This document shows positions 10,811 through 32,140 of a DNA stretch of 64,000 nt, in pieces. Each line of letters starts with the position of its first letter. Position 1 is the stretch's first letter. The notes under the pieces were generated by a model. That model did not search any database. It had not been told where the DNA came from and worked only from the letters and a program-made list of their open reading frames with translations. The stretch is from IMG/VR virus record IMGVR_UViG_3300033149_002633, positions 1 through 64,000 of that record. The stretch is one strand, 5' to 3'. The position numbers were made by a program, and so were the translations under genes. This stretch comes from a virus.

Positions 10811-11226
10811 TTATATCTCTCCTCTATTTCTTCAAGGATTTGATAAACATAATAACATAATCTGTATCTGAATTCACGGAATGTATCTTTCATTTCCCTT
10901 TTCTTATTCTCATGTAAATCATCGAAAGGAATTGGTCTGTTATCATCGTCTAATTCTAATATTTGTTCTAGCTGATATAGTATATCATAGATGAGTATTC
11001 CATATCTTTTCTGCTGGATTTCTATTAAGTCTAAGATAGTCTGAAATGTGTTGCTCTTGATAAAGTAACTGGTACATTTTTCGAATTCATCGTTACAACT
11101 ATCATGATATTCATCAGCAAAGACGAATATTGTATCAAGCCATTTCTTATCTCCATCTTTTCCAGTTGGATAACCCAATAAATGGGTTAAAACTGAATTG
11201 TCAATTTCTGTCCATCTGTAGTTCAT
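10807..11226 (-). CDS. Hypothetical helical protein, 139 aa
   Basis: Start ATG 11226 follows GGTGATGAAA. Mostly helical and acidic, with C-terminal REFRYRLCYYVYQILEEIEER. First gene behind the promoter with the 27-bp palindrome, so it is probably expressed under viral repressor control. No family recognised. Confidence 0.72.
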   Translation of the reverse strand: MNYRWTEIDNSVLTHLLGYPTGKDGDKKWLDTIFVFADEYHDSCNDEFEKCTSYFIKSNTFQTILDLIEIQQKRYGILIYDILYQLEQILELDDDNRPIPFDDLHENKKREMKDTFREFRYRLCYYVYQILEEIEERYK

Positions 11227-11253
11227 TTTTCATCACCAAAAAACAAAGTTTTT

Positions 11254-11280
11254 GTGGTCGTAATACTGTATTACGACCAC
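11254..11280. promoter_or_regulatory. Perfect 27-bp operator palindrome
   Basis: Arms GTGGTCGTAATAC and GTATTACGACCAC flank a single T at 11267; all 13 positions pair. The centre is 19.5 bases downstream of the TTTAAA centre of the adjoining promoter, so a bound dimer would cover the start site. It is the longest of the three shared operators; its outer GACCA half also occurs twice at 14650-14683. Confidence 0.82.
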
Positions 11281-11281
11281 T

Positions 11282-11298
11282 TATTTAAACCTTTCGAA
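11282..11298 (-). promoter_or_regulatory. Archaeal promoter for 11226-10041 operon
   Basis: Minus strand reads TTCGAAAGGTTTAAATAA, a consensus match. The operator at 11254-11280 lies directly downstream. Confidence 0.75.
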
Positions 11299-11303
11299 TA
11301 TTT

Positions 11304-11540
11304 TTATTTTTTATTCTTATTACAATAGACAGTTATATAGCGTATATCAGTTATATCTATAAAGTATATCTTTAAGTCTTTGTCTACTTTAATACCGTCT
11401 TCTTCTGTAACTGCTAATGATGTATTAGTAGCAAATAAGAATATATAGTCCCCAATCATCTCACAATCTACATGAGCAATGTAGATTTTACTGAAAGGGG
11501 GGATAAAAAAATAAATAGGGTCTGTATTATTAGTAGTCAA
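11304..11540 (-). CDS. Hypothetical beta-rich protein (78 aa)
   Basis: The only start giving the full frame is a TTG at 11540, ten bases inside the end of the upstream gene and preceded by GGAGAGATGATG. The next ATG would remove the first 27 residues. Beta-strand pattern (KIYIAHVDCEMIGDYIFLF, IKVDKDLKIYFIDITDIRY) suggests a small barrel. Function unknown; start uncertain. Confidence 0.6.
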   Translation of the reverse strand: MTTNNTDPIYFFIPPFSKIYIAHVDCEMIGDYIFLFATNTSLAVTEEDGIKVDKDLKIYFIDITDIRYITVYCNKNKK

Positions 11541-12510
11541 GGTTCATCATCTCTCCTAACATTTTACTTTCTTCATCCTTTTTTATTTCTTCATTTGTTA
11601 AGTCTATTACTACTTCTCTTTTTGGCTTGAATACTTTTGTCTTAAATGGGTGTTTTAATACCATAATTGGATAGAAGTCAAGTCTTTGTCCTTTTTGTTG
11701 AGCTTCTTCTTTTGTTAAGTTTGTATATATTCTCGTACTTGCATATATATCGTCATTTGCATATGTTTCTAATGTTCCTATCAATGTGTAGAAGTATTTT
11801 TCATCGTCTTTTCGAAGGGTTTCAAAAATCGATTTGAAAGCATCATAAACACACGAGGTGTTACGATTTACATCATTCTTGATATAATAGTCATAGAGAT
11901 AATCGAAAATGTCTGTAACTTGTTTATATTTCTTCAATACATCAACAATTAATACTTGCTCAGAAAAAACATACTCAGAAAAAACATAAAGAGTTGCTTC
12001 AGTGTTTTTGTAATACCTTATCATTGTATCAATTTGTGATTTTAGTCTATTGATAGTTTCATGTAAGTCTTCAAAGCTTATACAATGTTCTTCTTCTTTT
12101 TCTGGACATTCTTCAAATAGCCATTCTCCAAATATGTTTCTTTCATTTATTGTCTCTTCTAAATCATCTAATATTTCTTCTAAGGTTAATTCTCCTTCAT
12201 CTTCTGCGTCGCAGTTAAGGCATATTATTTTGAACTCAAGTTTATCATCAAAGGATTGTGCATAAGGATAGTCATCGAGAGAGATTTCATGATTGGTATA
12301 GACCATTACATCATTTTCTTCATCTTCATACTCACATTCACCACTTAAGAGACTTGAAAATCTCCTACCTATATCAATACAGAATGTCCCATTGTATTTC
12401 TGCCCGCAATTAATACATTCTATGATATAACCTATATGGTCTTCGTCAGCCCATTTGTTATAATTCTCTGGTTTTATTATTAGTCTATGTCCGTTGTATT
12501 CATATGGCAT
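11530..12510 (-). CDS. Hypothetical protein with two zinc knuckles (326 aa)
   Basis: Start ATG 12510 has GGTGATAAA. CINC (about 33-36) and CLNC (about 97-100) may form one zinc site in the N-terminal ~115 residues. An acidic linker and a helical C-terminal half follow. A small internal duplication gives YVFSEYVFSEQ (about residues 178-188), from a repeated 15-base unit near 11961-11990. No recognised family. Confidence 0.75.
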   Translation of the reverse strand: MPYEYNGHRLIIKPENYNKWADEDHIGYIIECINCGQKYNGTFCIDIGRRFSSLLSGECEYEDEENDVMVYTNHEISLDDYPYAQSFDDKLEFKIICLNCDAEDEGELTLEEILDDLEETINERNIFGEWLFEECPEKEEEHCISFEDLHETINRLKSQIDTMIRYYKNTEATLYVFSEYVFSEQVLIVDVLKKYKQVTDIFDYLYDYYIKNDVNRNTSCVYDAFKSIFETLRKDDEKYFYTLIGTLETYANDDIYASTRIYTNLTKEEAQQKGQRLDFYPIMVLKHPFKTKVFKPKREVVIDLTNEEIKKDEESKMLGEMMNLDY

Positions 12511-19326: not shown

Positions 19327-19581
19327 TTAACGTCTATAAGGTTTCATGTAGTAAATTCCTTCTTGACGTAATTTCTTTTCTTTTATAAGTAAAACGAGAG
19401 CTGTTTCAAGGTCAGAATATTTGGTATAAGGATAAAATCTACGACCATTAATTAATCTGTGTATTTCTTTGATAGTAAGGGAATAACTATGTCCTTCGAA
19501 AACTCGTAAGATATTCTTTTTTATTTTTAGTATATGTCTTTCTTCTTTAGAGATGACTTGGTCATTTCTTAATGGCATCAT
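19327..19581 (-). CDS. Small winged-helix protein (84 aa)
   Basis: Residues 15-80 read as a winged helix (HILKIKKNILRVFEG, SLTIKEIHRLINGRRFYPY, LETALVLLIKEKKLRQEG, then strand IYYMKPYRR). Start overlaps the PolB stop by ATGA, so it is translated with PolB and may regulate or accompany it. Confidence 0.7.
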   Translation of the reverse strand: MMPLRNDQVISKEERHILKIKKNILRVFEGHSYSLTIKEIHRLINGRRFYPYTKYSDLETALVLLIKEKKLRQEGIYYMKPYRR

Positions 19582-22286
19582 AATCCCTCAAAATTTAGTT
19601 TTGTTTGAACTCTTTTTTTCTTCTTTACGCTATCTTTGATAGGATTTACTAATTGGTTATAGACACTACGAAGTATGTTAATATATTCATCTGGATTGAT
19701 ATCTTTCTTACTTGCAAGTTCAACTGGAAGAACTTCTTTCCTTGTTTGTTTTTTAGATTGTTTAAAAGTATATATGAATTCGATAACAGTACCCTTTTTT
19801 ATGAGAAGATTCTCATCTATAGGTTGGCTACTGTTATTACGTATAGCTTCTACTAATTTTTCTGCAGCTTGGACTTGAGGAGGATTTGATTTATAATTCT
19901 TAAGTGTATTTGACATAGTAATTTTGATAGAATAATCACTTATATCTCCAAATCTGTTTTTTATTGCTTTTTCATAGTCATTTAACGAAGTCTCGAGTTT
20001 GTTGATAAGACATGGAATATCAGACGGTTTTCTCAGAGTTTCTTCTATTATTTTAGTCCATTTCTCAAATGCATCTCGTATGATTTTTGGTATATGTTTT
20101 TTCTTTCCTACTAATCCAGCAATAATTATATTTGTTTTACCGTTAGGTTTCTTTTCAACTATCAAATAGTTCTTCTTTTCTGACAAAACTATTGCATATC
20201 CCCTTTCTTCTATGGCTAAATCTACTCCATATCTCTGTTTAATATCCTTTACAAATTCATCCCATCTTTCTTCTGTAACATTTATGAGGAAAACACTATC
20301 AGTATCACCATAGATTACTTCTGCTTCATCTTCTGTTTCAAAATAGTCTTTAATAGCCATGATAGTTTGTCTTGCTGTAGCAGTTACACTTTCAGCTGCT
20401 GGACCGCAGAAAAGTGGAAAGACATCGAACCCATAAACACCATAGGAAGCATTGATGATAACTTTTAGATATTGTTCTACTGCTTTATATCCTATAACTT
20501 TATTCTTATTTTTCTTAAAATAATAAACTCTCACATCTTTGATAAAGCCTATGATTGTTGAAGTTAATCCATCAAATTTTTTACAGATATGATGTGTCAT
20601 AGACTTCTCTGTTTCAGTCATATTTTCTTCTTTTAACTTATTGACTGGAAGACTACTTATACTATACACTTTATTATCTTTACATTCTGGATGATTACAA
20701 TTCATTGTGCTGTAACAGATGTTGTTATTGACTATCATAGAAGGATAAAGACTTGCTACGTCAGCTACAAGTAGATTAAAATGACAACCTCTTTTAGGTT
20801 CAAAAACTACTGCTCCAGCAAATTTTTTACCAGTGGCTGATTTTGAATAAATGGGTCCTATTTTCTCTAATTCTTTCTTGTTAATGTTAATCATGTTATA
20901 ATATACCAGTATTCTGCGTGAAAGATTAAGTATAACTGCAGATACATATCTTCTACAAGCACTTTCTAATGTTAATGTTCCTACTCTCATTGTGATAACT
21001 ATTAATTGCATTACAATTTCATTGTCATGAGTAGCTAATTTTAGAACTAATGCATTATCTTGAGCATTATAGTATGCTAATTCTGACATAGATAAATCCG
21101 TAATAGTATTCTCATAGACATATTTTTTCTCATTGAGTAGAGATTCTGTAATATCGTCAAGAGAATTTTTCTCGTATGCAGCTTTGAAAGCATAGTTTTT
21201 GATTGATGGGTTCTTGAAGAACTCATATAAGTCTATGAGGAATTTGTTTTTTATCCCTCTACTCTTTTTTATTACCTCTTTTCCACTATCAATGAATTCA
21301 TTCTTATAACCCCAGATTTTATTTGATTTAACACCTAAATATCTCATCCTTGTATCAAGATAAGGAATATCAAAATCATCTACGTTGAAACCTACGATAA
21401 ATTTCTGTGGAAGACCACATAGATAAGATACAACATCTTTTAACATTTCTCTTTCGTTATCATATTCTCTAATGATGTGGTTTTCATGTTTCTTATTGAA
21501 ACCTTTATCTATTCTTTTTCTCATTTCGTCTGATAAAATAAATGTTAAGTGATGTATATTGTCTTCCTTATACCAGCTTAATGTGACTGAAGATATAGGT
21601 GCTACTGCAGTATAAGCATCTATAGCATCTCTATAGTTGAAATCACACTCGATATCTATTGCTAATATATGTTCTTTAAAGACTGGAAATGGTGTAGTGA
21701 ATAATGATATTGCCCAATCAAAAGCTTTCTTTGGCATTTTTCCTTTATATTTCTCTATTTCTGGGATAGTATAGATTGGATGGCTTCTTATTTTTTCCCA
21801 ATCTAATTCTGGTTCAAGTGTTTCGATGTTATATGGCATTCCTAAAGTATAATCATTATCAAAATTGAATACATCAGCATAAGGTATATGGTTATTATAC
21901 ACAAATTCTGGTGCTATGAGCTGACTTAGACCAGTATATTTCTTGTTTGTGATAAAGTTTGGATTAGTTGTGCATACTTTAGTTAGCATGATTGGTTCTC
22001 TTGACCTTGGGTGTATCTTTTTAACTCTCTCGACTTTTACTACTTTTGATGCATTCCAGACGAATTTCTTAGACAATGGAGATTTTATTACATATCTATA
22101 TTTTTGTACTTTATCTATATTCATTATTTGTGATGGTGTAAGTACTGTATAGAAATATGGGTAATGTCCTTCTGTTTTCTTAATTTCTGTTATTTTTCCA
22201 GTTTTATCATCCCAAAATAATAATATTTGTCCATTACTTTCCTTTTCACCTTTTGGATATTTCGTTGATATTAACCAATTCGTCAT
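19578..22286 (-). CDS. polB: DNA polymerase, family B
   Basis: 902 residues, all key motifs present. Proofreading exonuclease: DIE at 211-213, NVDDFD at 301-306, YNAQD at 406-410. Polymerase: motif A DVASLYPS at 509-516, motif B KVIINASYG at 608-616, motif C YGDTDS at 659-664, KKNY at 704-707. A His/Cys stretch at about 525-570 (CYSTMNCNHPEC, HHICKK) between motifs A and B is an insertion that may bind metal. Replicates the viral genome, presumably with the primase-helicase at 23617. The C-terminal 40 residues are basic, with QTKLNFEGL at the end resembling a PCNA-binding peptide (Q-x-x-L-x-x-F). Confidence 0.95.
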   Translation of the reverse strand: MTNWLISTKYPKGEKESNGQILLFWDDKTGKITEIKKTEGHYPYFYTVLTPSQIMNIDKVQKYRYVIKSPLSKKFVWNASKVVKVERVKKIHPRSREPIMLTKVCTTNPNFITNKKYTGLSQLIAPEFVYNNHIPYADVFNFDNDYTLGMPYNIETLEPELDWEKIRSHPIYTIPEIEKYKGKMPKKAFDWAISLFTTPFPVFKEHILAIDIECDFNYRDAIDAYTAVAPISSVTLSWYKEDNIHHLTFILSDEMRKRIDKGFNKKHENHIIREYDNEREMLKDVVSYLCGLPQKFIVGFNVDDFDIPYLDTRMRYLGVKSNKIWGYKNEFIDSGKEVIKKSRGIKNKFLIDLYEFFKNPSIKNYAFKAAYEKNSLDDITESLLNEKKYVYENTITDLSMSELAYYNAQDNALVLKLATHDNEIVMQLIVITMRVGTLTLESACRRYVSAVILNLSRRILVYYNMININKKELEKIGPIYSKSATGKKFAGAVVFEPKRGCHFNLLVADVASLYPSMIVNNNICYSTMNCNHPECKDNKVYSISSLPVNKLKEENMTETEKSMTHHICKKFDGLTSTIIGFIKDVRVYYFKKNKNKVIGYKAVEQYLKVIINASYGVYGFDVFPLFCGPAAESVTATARQTIMAIKDYFETEDEAEVIYGDTDSVFLINVTEERWDEFVKDIKQRYGVDLAIEERGYAIVLSEKKNYLIVEKKPNGKTNIIIAGLVGKKKHIPKIIRDAFEKWTKIIEETLRKPSDIPCLINKLETSLNDYEKAIKNRFGDISDYSIKITMSNTLKNYKSNPPQVQAAEKLVEAIRNNSSQPIDENLLIKKGTVIEFIYTFKQSKKQTRKEVLPVELASKKDINPDEYINILRSVYNQLVNPIKDSVKKKKRVQTKLNFEGL

Positions 22287-22585: not shown

Positions 22586-23449
22586 CTATTGATAAGAAAT
22601 ATAATGTTCAATATATTTCTTTTTTAATCTTCTATTTGTTGTCGATATCATTGCTTCTGAAATATCACAAACATAATAGTTACATCCTAAGTTTTTTGCG
22701 ACAAAAGCTGTAGTTCCTCCTCCCACAAAACTATCATAAACAGTTAATCCATTACCAAATTTAGGGTGTGACTTTAATGCGCATTCGACTAACATTGGTG
22801 GAAACTCGGCTGGATTATATTTTTTAATATATTGATTGTATTTCAGTATAGGTATTACCCACACATCTCCAATATCCTTGAAGGCTCTACCAAATTTTTC
22901 TTTATACTTATCTATTACTTTCTTATATCTCTTGTCATTCAGATATTCTTCTGACAAATTTTCTCCTATAAGGTCTTTCCTTATTTTTACGTTTCCCTTT
23001 CCGAATAATAATATCATCTCTTTATATGATGAGAATTTACTGATTACCTTGAAAGGGTCTAAATGTTGTTTATTCGGCATTACCCAACATATATCTTGTA
23101 TGAATTTCCAGTTTGACATTTCTTCTATTTGCTCACCGATAAAAACAATTTCGGATAATGATTGGAGTGGCTTGGAGCTGTTTATCTTCATGTTCAAATA
23201 CATTAATGCTCCATCAGAACAAATTTTATCGGTAGGATAAAGAGAGTGTATAATCATATCCATCCATTCACTATCTGGCTTGTTATCAATATAACCAGTA
23301 TATGGAATTCCAATATTATATGGAGGAGATGTAATAATTATATCCACTTTAGGGTAATTATAGTATTCTATCAGAGAATAAATATAATTATGAAAAGAAA
23401 TAGCATCATATTGTTTTATGACTTTATATTGTTTTACTACTTCGTTCAT
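22586..23449 (-). CDS. DNA methyltransferase (beta-class N4/N6)
   Basis: 287 residues. Catalytic motif IV is TSPPY (40-44) near the N-terminus; the SAM-binding motif DSFVGGGTTAFVAKNLG lies near the C-terminus (about 245-262), followed by YYVCDIS. This order (catalytic before SAM site) is the beta class, N6-adenine or N4-cytosine. No restriction enzyme is adjacent, so it is probably a solitary methylase protecting viral DNA or marking replication. ATG 23449 lies about 27 bases from a TATA box, a leaderless mRNA. Confidence 0.88.
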   Translation of the reverse strand: MNEVVKQYKVIKQYDAISFHNYIYSLIEYYNYPKVDIIITSPPYNIGIPYTGYIDNKPDSEWMDMIIHSLYPTDKICSDGALMYLNMKINSSKPLQSLSEIVFIGEQIEEMSNWKFIQDICWVMPNKQHLDPFKVISKFSSYKEMILLFGKGNVKIRKDLIGENLSEEYLNDKRYKKVIDKYKEKFGRAFKDIGDVWVIPILKYNQYIKKYNPAEFPPMLVECALKSHPKFGNGLTVYDSFVGGGTTAFVAKNLGCNYYVCDISEAMISTTNRRLKKKYIEHYISYQ

Positions 23450-30863: not shown

Positions 30864-31247
30864 ATGGAAATAAATTATGAACAAGCAATGTTTTGGCTTT
30901 GGGTAGCAACTGTAGGTGGAACATTTCTTGGTACTACACTTTTCGTTCTAATCAGAAAATTACAAGGGAAACCAGTTGCAGCTCCAGAATTGATTAAGCT
31001 TTTTCAAAATCATAATAGATTAATTATGTTGTGGTTTTGGAGAGCATTAGAAGATGGAGTTATAACTAATGAAGAAGCAATGGAGTTTAAAACTATTGTA
31101 ACACAAGGATTTCAAGATATTCTTTCATTTATTCTTACGACTTATGGGAAACCAGAGTTGAAAGAAACCAACGATAAAGTAGTCATTCCAGAGCCTCCTT
31201 CTGCTGAAGAAATAAGAAATGAACTACCTCCTCCAGAGCCAAAGTAA
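30864..31247 (+). CDS. Membrane protein with one TM and Pro-rich tail
   Basis: 127 residues: a hydrophobic segment at about 7-31 (MFWLWVATVGGTFLGTTLFVLI), a basic stop (RKLQGK), an amphipathic middle (LIMLWFWRALEDGV) and a Pro/Glu-rich tail (VVIPEPPSAEEIRNELPPPEPK). Converges on the response regulator gene with a three-base gap. Possibly a partner of that membrane protein or a holin-like protein; neither is shown. Confidence 0.62.
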   Translation: MEINYEQAMFWLWVATVGGTFLGTTLFVLIRKLQGKPVAAPELIKLFQNHNRLIMLWFWRALEDGVITNEEAMEFKTIVTQGFQDILSFILTTYGKPELKETNDKVVIPEPPSAEEIRNELPPPEPK

Positions 31248-31250
31248 AAA

Positions 31251-32105
31251 TTAGATTATTCTTTTTTTAGTTTTCTTTTTTCTTTGTTTCTTTCTATTAT
31301 GAGTTATGAGAGCATTTTGTACTTCCCAAAGGTAATTAGGTAATTCAAATACTTCTTCTTCTTTATCTACGCCTAACATTTTCCCAAATATTTGAGGTGA
31401 GAAAACTACTATCATTGTAAATAATGATGCCATGATTATTACTAAAACAGAATTATTTACAATCCATTCTACAAGAGCTGAATTGCTATTTAGTTGTTGA
31501 TTTAAATAGCTTACAATAGCTACTAAGATAGAACCTCCCATACCTCCTAACAGACCAGAATTTCTGGCTTTTCCTAATTCATTCTTAAAGGTATTGACCA
31601 GATTTTCGCTATTTTTAGCTATGTATGACATTTGAATTTTGGTTTCTTGTATGTCACATCTTGTATCTACTATCTCTTGCGATAGTTGTGCTAAACCTCT
31701 TTCTAAGTTATAGATTCTTTGGCGTAGTATATTTACTGTTACTTTATCGATATGCATTTCAATTTCTGCTAATAAGTTTGGAATGTTTATTGGTTTCTTG
31801 AAGACATTTTTAACACCGGCATTTAAAAACTCTTCATCATCATCATCGTTAAAACCAGTGATACCTACTATAACTGCGTCTGGGTCGATTTTTAGTATTT
31901 CTTCTGTTGCTCTACTTCCACTCATAGTTGGCATGACTTTATCCATTAAGACTATATCTGGCATAATCTTCCTATATGATTTTACGGCTTCGTCTCCGTT
32001 GTTTAATACTACTACTTCGAAACCACGTTCTTCAAATTTAGTGGCGAGTGCTTTTGCAAACTCATCATTATCATCTACAATCATGACGCAGTTTCTGTAA
32101 CTCAT
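31251..32105 (-). CDS. CheY-like receiver fused to coiled coil and two TM segments
   Basis: Residues 1-118 form a response-regulator receiver with every key residue: D11-D12 (VDDND), phospho-acceptor D55 (DIVLMD), T83 (GITGF) and K104 (FKKP). Then a coiled coil (~120-178, LRQRIYNLERGLAQLSQEIVDTR), two hydrophobic segments (~183-201 and ~216-236) and a cytoplasmic tail ending in a Lys/Arg run. No DNA-binding or enzymatic output domain and no kinase gene in the window, so the signal would come from the host. Start: ATG 32105; TATA-like sequence lies both directly before it and about 25 bases upstream, so an ATG at 32084 is possible but would cut the first strand. Confidence 0.82.
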   Translation of the reverse strand: MSYRNCVMIVDDNDEFAKALATKFEERGFEVVVLNNGDEAVKSYRKIMPDIVLMDKVMPTMSGSRATEEILKIDPDAVIVGITGFNDDDDEEFLNAGVKNVFKKPINIPNLLAEIEMHIDKVTVNILRQRIYNLERGLAQLSQEIVDTRCDIQETKIQMSYIAKNSENLVNTFKNELGKARNSGLLGGMGGSILVAIVSYLNQQLNSNSALVEWIVNNSVLVIIMASLFTMIVVFSPQIFGKMLGVDKEEEVFELPNYLWEVQNALITHNRKKQRKKKTKKRII

Positions 32106-32140
32106 CAATTTAAAGGTAGAAAAAAAATATAAAAATTTAT

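What the first reader, a model, noticed from the sequence alone, without database searches (positions are those of the whole stretch)
31251..32105. Intact CheY receiver domain on a viral membrane-anchored protein
All catalytic positions of a response regulator are kept (D11/D12, D55, T83, K104), so it should be phosphorylated. Yet the output is a coiled coil plus two TM segments and a basic tail, with no DNA-binding or enzyme domain. No histidine kinase is in the window. A virus-coded phospho-switch sitting in the membrane would be a new way to take over or insulate host two-component or chemotaxis signalling, and may pair with the convergent TM protein at 30864.
Basis: partly seen in the sequence, partly recalled or inferred. 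Interest (0 to 1): 0.8.

Follow-up and report, generated by a model that had tools for sequence, protein, structure and literature searches.

The report
Archaeal-virus membrane response regulator with kinase
A tailed virus, probably of an archaeon, carries a membrane-anchored phosphorylation switch and, elsewhere in its genome, a histidine kinase that could drive it, so it seems to bring its own two-part signalling circuit whose output lies in the cell membrane.

Summary
ORF 31251-32105(-), 284 aa, is a receiver domain (Pfam PF00072, E=3e-20; AlphaFold2 pLDDT about 95) with D11/D12, D55, T83 and K104. Its last helix runs on as one 75-residue helix into a two-TM hairpin and a basic tail. The C-terminal half matches no Pfam family. 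An ortholog with the same layout, catalytic residues and convergent TM neighbour occurs at the same place in a second virus (TerL 65% identical).

The interpretation needs one correction. There is no kinase in the window, but the 79-kb record has one outside it (73158-74654): a soluble REC-PAS-HisKA-HATPase kinase. Its ortholog lies near the portal gene of the second virus too. Each record holds exactly one such kinase and one non-kinase receiver protein. The simplest reading is a dedicated viral two-component pair with a membrane output, rather than insulation of host signalling.

The output is unknown. Several bacterial phages carry a CheY-like protein beside a small TM protein in or next to the lysis genes, so egress timing is my leading guess, by analogy only.

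Phosphotransfer, pairing and membrane location are untested. The host is inferred (PolB1-like polymerase, TATA boxes), not shown. New variant of a known kind.

The parts
31251..32105 (-). Whole gene of the membrane response regulator, 284 aa, ATG at 32105
31788..32090 (-). Receiver domain, residues 6-106; D55 codon at 31941-31943
   Evidence: Pfam PF00072, AF2, active-site residues
31560..31784 (-). Continuous alpha5-coil helix, residues 108-182
   Evidence: AF2, heptad shuffles
31485..31559 (-). First TM helix region, residues 183-207
   Evidence: hydropathy, AF2 helix 189-207
31377..31451 (-). Second TM helix, residues 219-243
   Evidence: hydropathy, AF2 helix
31254..31337 (-). Basic C-terminal tail helix, residues 257-284
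   Evidence: net +10 in the last 18 residues, AF2 helix 257-283
32127..32133 (-). TATA-like box TTTATAT, 28 bases before the ATG
   Evidence: sequence read directly
30864..31247 (+). Convergent neighbour, 127 aa, one N-terminal TM segment plus helical domain; ortholog 38% identical in the related virus; a functional link is not shown

Best explanation
The gene is the response-regulator half of a virus-coded two-component system. The kinase half is the soluble REC-PAS-HisKA-HATPase protein at 73158-74654 of the same record. Proposed mechanism: the kinase senses a cytosolic cue through its PAS domain and/or its own receiver, autophosphorylates H291 and passes the phosphate to D55 of the membrane protein. 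The alpha4-beta5-alpha5 face then changes, and because alpha5 is one continuous helix with the coil, the change alters the pairing or register of the coil and so the state of the TM hairpin, perhaps together with the neighbouring TM protein. Shown by sequence: both proteins, intact active-site motifs in both, one of each per record, conservation of both in two viruses. Predicted: TM hairpin and continuous helix. Inferred: phosphotransfer, pairing, membrane insertion, direction of signalling. Guessed: that the output is timing of virus exit or another membrane event of infection.
For: Kinase on the same record with Response_reg 1.5e-21, PAS 2.5e-6, HisKA 0.001 and HATPase_c 4e-19. Ortholog in the relative without PAS, with Response_reg 5e-15 and HATPase_c 4e-20, near the portal gene as in the window's record. 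Both kinases keep H291, D292, N295, N393, N397, the DxGxG box and the GxG of G2, and in their receivers D12, D13, D61, T/S89, K111. Family scans of both records find exactly two receivers (the regulator and the kinase's own) and one HATPase each. Regulator ortholog 41% identical with all catalytic positions kept, T83 as S. Neither kinase has a TM segment (highest 19-residue hydropathy 0.89), so in this pair the membrane partner is the regulator.
Against: The two genes lie 41 kb apart, not in an operon. Only two related genomes support co-occurrence, so it is not statistical evidence of pairing. HisKA is weak by Pfam in one kinase (0.001) and not reported at E<=0.01 in the other. In the relative the proline after K104 is alanine and alpha4 is about three residues shorter, so switching could differ. 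TM prediction rests on hydropathy and a lower-confidence part of the model (block pLDDT 61-79).
Confidence: 0.6

Rival explanations
1. Host kinases (CheA or others) phosphorylate the regulator, which acts as a membrane-held phosphate sink or decoy for host two-component or chemotaxis signalling. The viral kinase serves something else, for instance its own receiver.
For: The receiver's closest solved relative is an archaeal CheY (6er7, E=3e-16) and the best NCBIfam match is CheY_Halo, below its cut-off. No known output domain. Kinase and regulator genes are not adjacent.
Against: A kinase is present in both viruses, and a sink does not need a long conserved coil and TM hairpin. No che gene was recognised in either record (no CheA, CheB or CheF search was run beyond the HATPase and receiver scans).
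Confidence: 0.2
2. Egress switch: the regulator and the TM protein at 30864 form a membrane device that times virus exit, set by phosphorylation. This is a more specific form of the best explanation and can be true together with it.
For: In several bacterial phage lineages a REC-only protein lies directly after a small N-TM protein in or beside the lysis genes: Alteromonas phages R8W and H4/4 (holin, TM protein, REC), R9Y1 (TM protein, REC, lysozyme), and IMG/VR records L013/L014 (TM protein, REC, amidase). The regulator here has its own coil and TM and a TM neighbour conserved in both viruses.
Against: Analogy only, no homology shown between the phage and archaeal-type membrane parts. No lysis gene was recognised in either virus. 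The TM neighbour is convergent, not co-transcribed, and the whole block is syntenic, so adjacency alone says little.
Confidence: 0.3
3. The receiver is only a protein-interaction module and the TM hairpin a plain anchor; the protein works without phosphorylation, for example to tether viral replication or assembly to the membrane.
For: Sequence data cannot show phosphorylation. The relative has A after K104 and a shorter alpha4.
Against: All catalytic positions are kept at 50% receiver identity, in both virus receivers and both kinase receivers; unphosphorylated receivers often lose some of them.
Confidence: 0.15

Closest known systems
Archaeal CheY and other REC-only response regulators (PF00072)
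   Same: Receiver fold and DD/D/T/K active site; archaeal CheY 6er7 is the closest solved sequence
   Different: CheY is a free soluble domain; here the receiver is fused to a coil and a two-TM hairpin
Archaeal REC-(PAS)n-HisKA-HATPase proteins (Galperin et al. 2018, PMC5847659)
   Same: The viral kinase has this domain order and no TM, as 62% of archaeal kinases in that census
   Different: Encoded by a virus; the only kinase of its record
Membrane-anchored MetOD3-REC-MetOD2 regulators of Methanoregula (PMC5847659)
   Same: The one membrane-anchored archaeal regulator type that I found in that census
   Different: The anchor lies before the receiver and a MetOD2 domain follows; sequence resemblance not tested here
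Histidine kinases of Ectocarpus/Feldmannia viruses and giant viruses; phage response regulators (BFVD)
   Same: Virus-coded two-component proteins
   Different: Other hosts; no match to the receiver-coil-TM2 layout was evident, though one 298-aa phage regulator (A0A8S5LY51) that aligned over 206 columns was not examined further
REC-only proteins in lysis regions of Alteromonas phages R8W, H4/4 and R9Y1
   Same: A viral receiver beside a small TM protein
   Different: Receiver and membrane part are separate proteins; bacterial hosts. HATPase was scanned only in the IMG/VR records of L013 and L014 (none found), not in the Alteromonas phages

Membership tests
Response regulator receiver domain (PF00072) | Match above the curated cut-off and (beta/alpha)5 fold | tested here: met
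   73 bits vs 30.2; AF2 model and Foldseek match to CheY
Response regulator receiver domain (PF00072) | Acidic pair, acceptor Asp, Thr/Ser, Lys | tested here: met
   D11/D12, D55, T83 (S in ortholog), K104
Response regulator receiver domain (PF00072) | Phosphorylation on Asp | not testable with these tools
   needs biochemistry
Classical DNA-binding or enzymatic response regulator | Known C-terminal output domain | tested here: not met
   Residues 116-284 match no Pfam family at E<=1 in the window protein and none above cut-off in the ortholog; PHROGs matches weak, E>=0.009
Two-component system | Histidine kinase in the same genome | tested here: met
   One kinase per record in both viruses; that it is the cognate one is not tested
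Two-component system | Kinase H, N, G1 and G2 motifs intact | tested here: met
Two-component system | Specific phosphotransfer from kinase to regulator | not testable with these tools
   needs biochemistry
CheY of the chemotaxis system | Stand-alone receiver | tested here: not met
   Coil and TM hairpin follow
CheY of the chemotaxis system | Contacts CheA and CheF/FliM | not tested
   Interface residues were not compared
Integral membrane protein | Two hydrophobic, uncharged, non-amphipathic helices | tested here: met
   Hydropathy and moment; prediction only, no experiment

The most novel reading that the evidence does not exclude
A virus of archaea carries a complete private two-component pathway whose output is not gene expression but a membrane device (regulator hairpin plus adjacent TM protein) that times virus exit. 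Bacterial phages hold a split version (REC protein plus TM protein) in or beside their lysis genes, so phospho-controlled egress would be a wider viral strategy.
Probability: 0.22. Interest if true: 0.88.

Novelty: new variant of a known kind. Interest (0 to 1): 0.63.

Why it matters
Viruses usually exploit host signalling; here one seems to bring both halves of a phospho-signalling pair, with the regulator rather than the sensor in the membrane. If the pair works, it would show a virus sensing the state of the cell during infection. How archaeal tailed viruses time and carry out exit is largely open, as far as I know, and this would give a testable entry. The layout (receiver, continuous alpha5-coil helix, TM hairpin) would also be a new output type for response regulators.

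Tried and rejected
AF2 with only the two viral sequences gave a poor model (pLDDT 53) and was replaced by a 35-sequence alignment. The viral-contig scan with the regulator alone found nothing; scans with TerL, HK, MCP, PolB and the regulator's C-terminal part returned the same single relative, and the scan with the regulator alignment returned that relative plus three generic receivers. These scans rest on a few short exact patterns, so distant relatives may be missed. The genome-contig scan gave generic receivers, the best 80 of 104; none of the 48 whose reading frames I read on shows a receiver-coil-TM2 layout by eye. C-terminal profile against 393 genomes of one archaeal phylum: 6 genomes with weak hits at E<=0.01, about what chance gives; two inspected were unrelated membrane proteins. 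Genomes of Thaumarchaeota and other TACK groups could not be reached, so the likeliest host group was not searched. A soil ammonia oxidiser as host was considered and not claimed. Papers on thaumarchaeal proviruses and on soil nitrifier viruses do not mention kinases or regulators in the main text; phrase searches for virus-encoded two-component systems found nothing. BFVD hit A0A8S5LY51 was not followed up.

Full report
Observation. The gene at 31251-32105 on the minus strand is real: 284 aa from ATG 32105, Pfam Response_reg at E=2.7e-20, with the acidic pair D11/D12, the acceptor D55, T83 and K104. An AlphaFold2 model on 35 sequences has mean pLDDT 83 (receiver about 95) and shows a receiver whose alpha5 continues without a break to residue 182, then two hydrophobic helices, then a tail helix. 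Foldseek places the receiver with CheY and Spo0F. Hydropathy shows two uncharged segments of low hydrophobic moment, and the last 18 residues carry net +10. The region after the receiver matches no Pfam family at E<=1 in the window protein, and only sub-threshold matches appear for the ortholog.

The virus. The window is 64 kb of a 79,254-base IMG/VR record. It is a tailed virus with contractile-tail genes: TerL, baseplate J, sheath, portal, HK97-type capsid protein and a family B polymerase. Among solved polymerases, this one is far closer to PolB1 1s5j (251 bits; from Sulfolobus, as I recall the entry) than to any other (69 bits or less), and TATA-like boxes cluster 25-34 bases before starts. 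I infer an archaeal host of the TACK group. Crenarchaeota with finished genomes have no two-component systems while Thaumarchaeota have many (PMC5847659), so a thaumarchaeal host is a fair guess, but genomes of that group could not be searched here.

Relatives. One related record was found, IMGVR_UViG_3300028883_000041 (85.6 kb), TerL 65% identical and largely syntenic. It has the ortholog of the regulator, 41% identical over the whole length, with the same layout and the same active site (T83 is S), and the convergent TM protein, 38% identical. Identity falls along the protein: receiver 50%, coil 41%, TM hairpin 32%, tail 28%. No relative of the C-terminal half was found elsewhere, within the limits of those searches.

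The kinase. The rest of the record does. At 73158-74654 on the plus strand lies a 498-aa protein with receiver, PAS, HisKA and HATPase_c. The relative has the ortholog in the corresponding place near the portal gene, without PAS. Both keep the phospho-accepting histidine and the N, G1 and G2 motifs and an intact receiver, and have no TM segment. Whole-record scans give exactly one HATPase and two receivers in each virus. So the regulator is the only receiver protein of the record that is not part of the kinase itself.

Reading. The simplest account is a viral two-component pair in which a common arrangement is reversed: the sensor kinase is cytosolic and the regulator is in the membrane. A continuous alpha5-coil helix gives a direct path from the switch face of the receiver to the hairpin. 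Pairing is inferred from one-to-one presence in two related genomes; it is not proved, and the genes are not adjacent. The kinase's own receiver leaves room for input from host kinases.

Output. In bacterial phages I found CheY-like proteins of about 150 aa directly after a small N-TM protein, in or beside the lysis genes: Alteromonas phages R8W, H4/4 and R9Y1, and the IMG/VR records of L013 and L014. The archaeal-type viruses have a TM protein beside a regulator that itself carries coil and TM. This makes membrane timing of exit the output that I favour, at about 0.3. There is no homology evidence for it, and no lysis protein was recognised in the archaeal-type viruses.

Novelty. Receivers, hybrid kinases and viral kinases are known, including in brown-algal and giant viruses. 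A receiver-coil-TM2 regulator is not listed in the parts that I read of the archaeal census (PMC5847659), and I found no paper on such a viral pair in an open-access library. I rate it a new variant of a known kind.

Noticed in passing
virus record G000 73158-74654 (+), L002:9659-11155: Soluble REC-PAS-HisKA-HATPase histidine kinase outside the window; ortholog without PAS at L009:13892-14926 in the related virus.
   Followed up: yes
L013:1291-2762, L014:9673-11150, L131, L132, L141: CheY-like REC-only proteins next to a small TM protein and lysis genes (holin, lysozyme or amidase) in several bacterial phage lineages.
   Followed up: partly
L131:2495-2956 (Alteromonas phage R8W gp48): Annotated and published (PMC8228385) as PhoB, a DNA-binding regulator for low phosphate, but at 153 aa it is about the length of a receiver alone, which leaves no room for a PhoB-type DNA-binding domain. 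It was not itself run against Pfam; its homolog in L013 gave only Response_reg above cut-off.
   Followed up: partly
window 19578-22286 (-): Family B DNA polymerase closest among solved structures to PolB1 1s5j (251 bits; all others 69 bits or less).
   Followed up: partly
window 22586-23449 (-) and L002:6490-7347 (+): Two N6/N4 DNA methyltransferases in one virus.
   Followed up: no
L002:12199-13191 (-), L010:542-1582 (+): Resolvase-like protein near the end of the record (weak Pfam match, 4e-6); its homolog in the relative lies in the opposite orientation.
   Followed up: no
L002 about 11150-11760: Long pyrimidine-rich low-complexity stretch just after the kinase gene.
   Followed up: no
window 61016-63497 (-), L002:8033-8932 (-), L009:1230-7604: Two glycosyltransferases and a sulfotransferase-like gene near the head genes, with a larger island of seemingly sugar-related genes in the relative; possible decoration of virion or cell surface.
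   Followed up: no
L003:11626-13248 (-): Tail-fibre-like protein with repeated units of the type 'GGSGTIAETLDVTGLTTVDD'.
   Followed up: no
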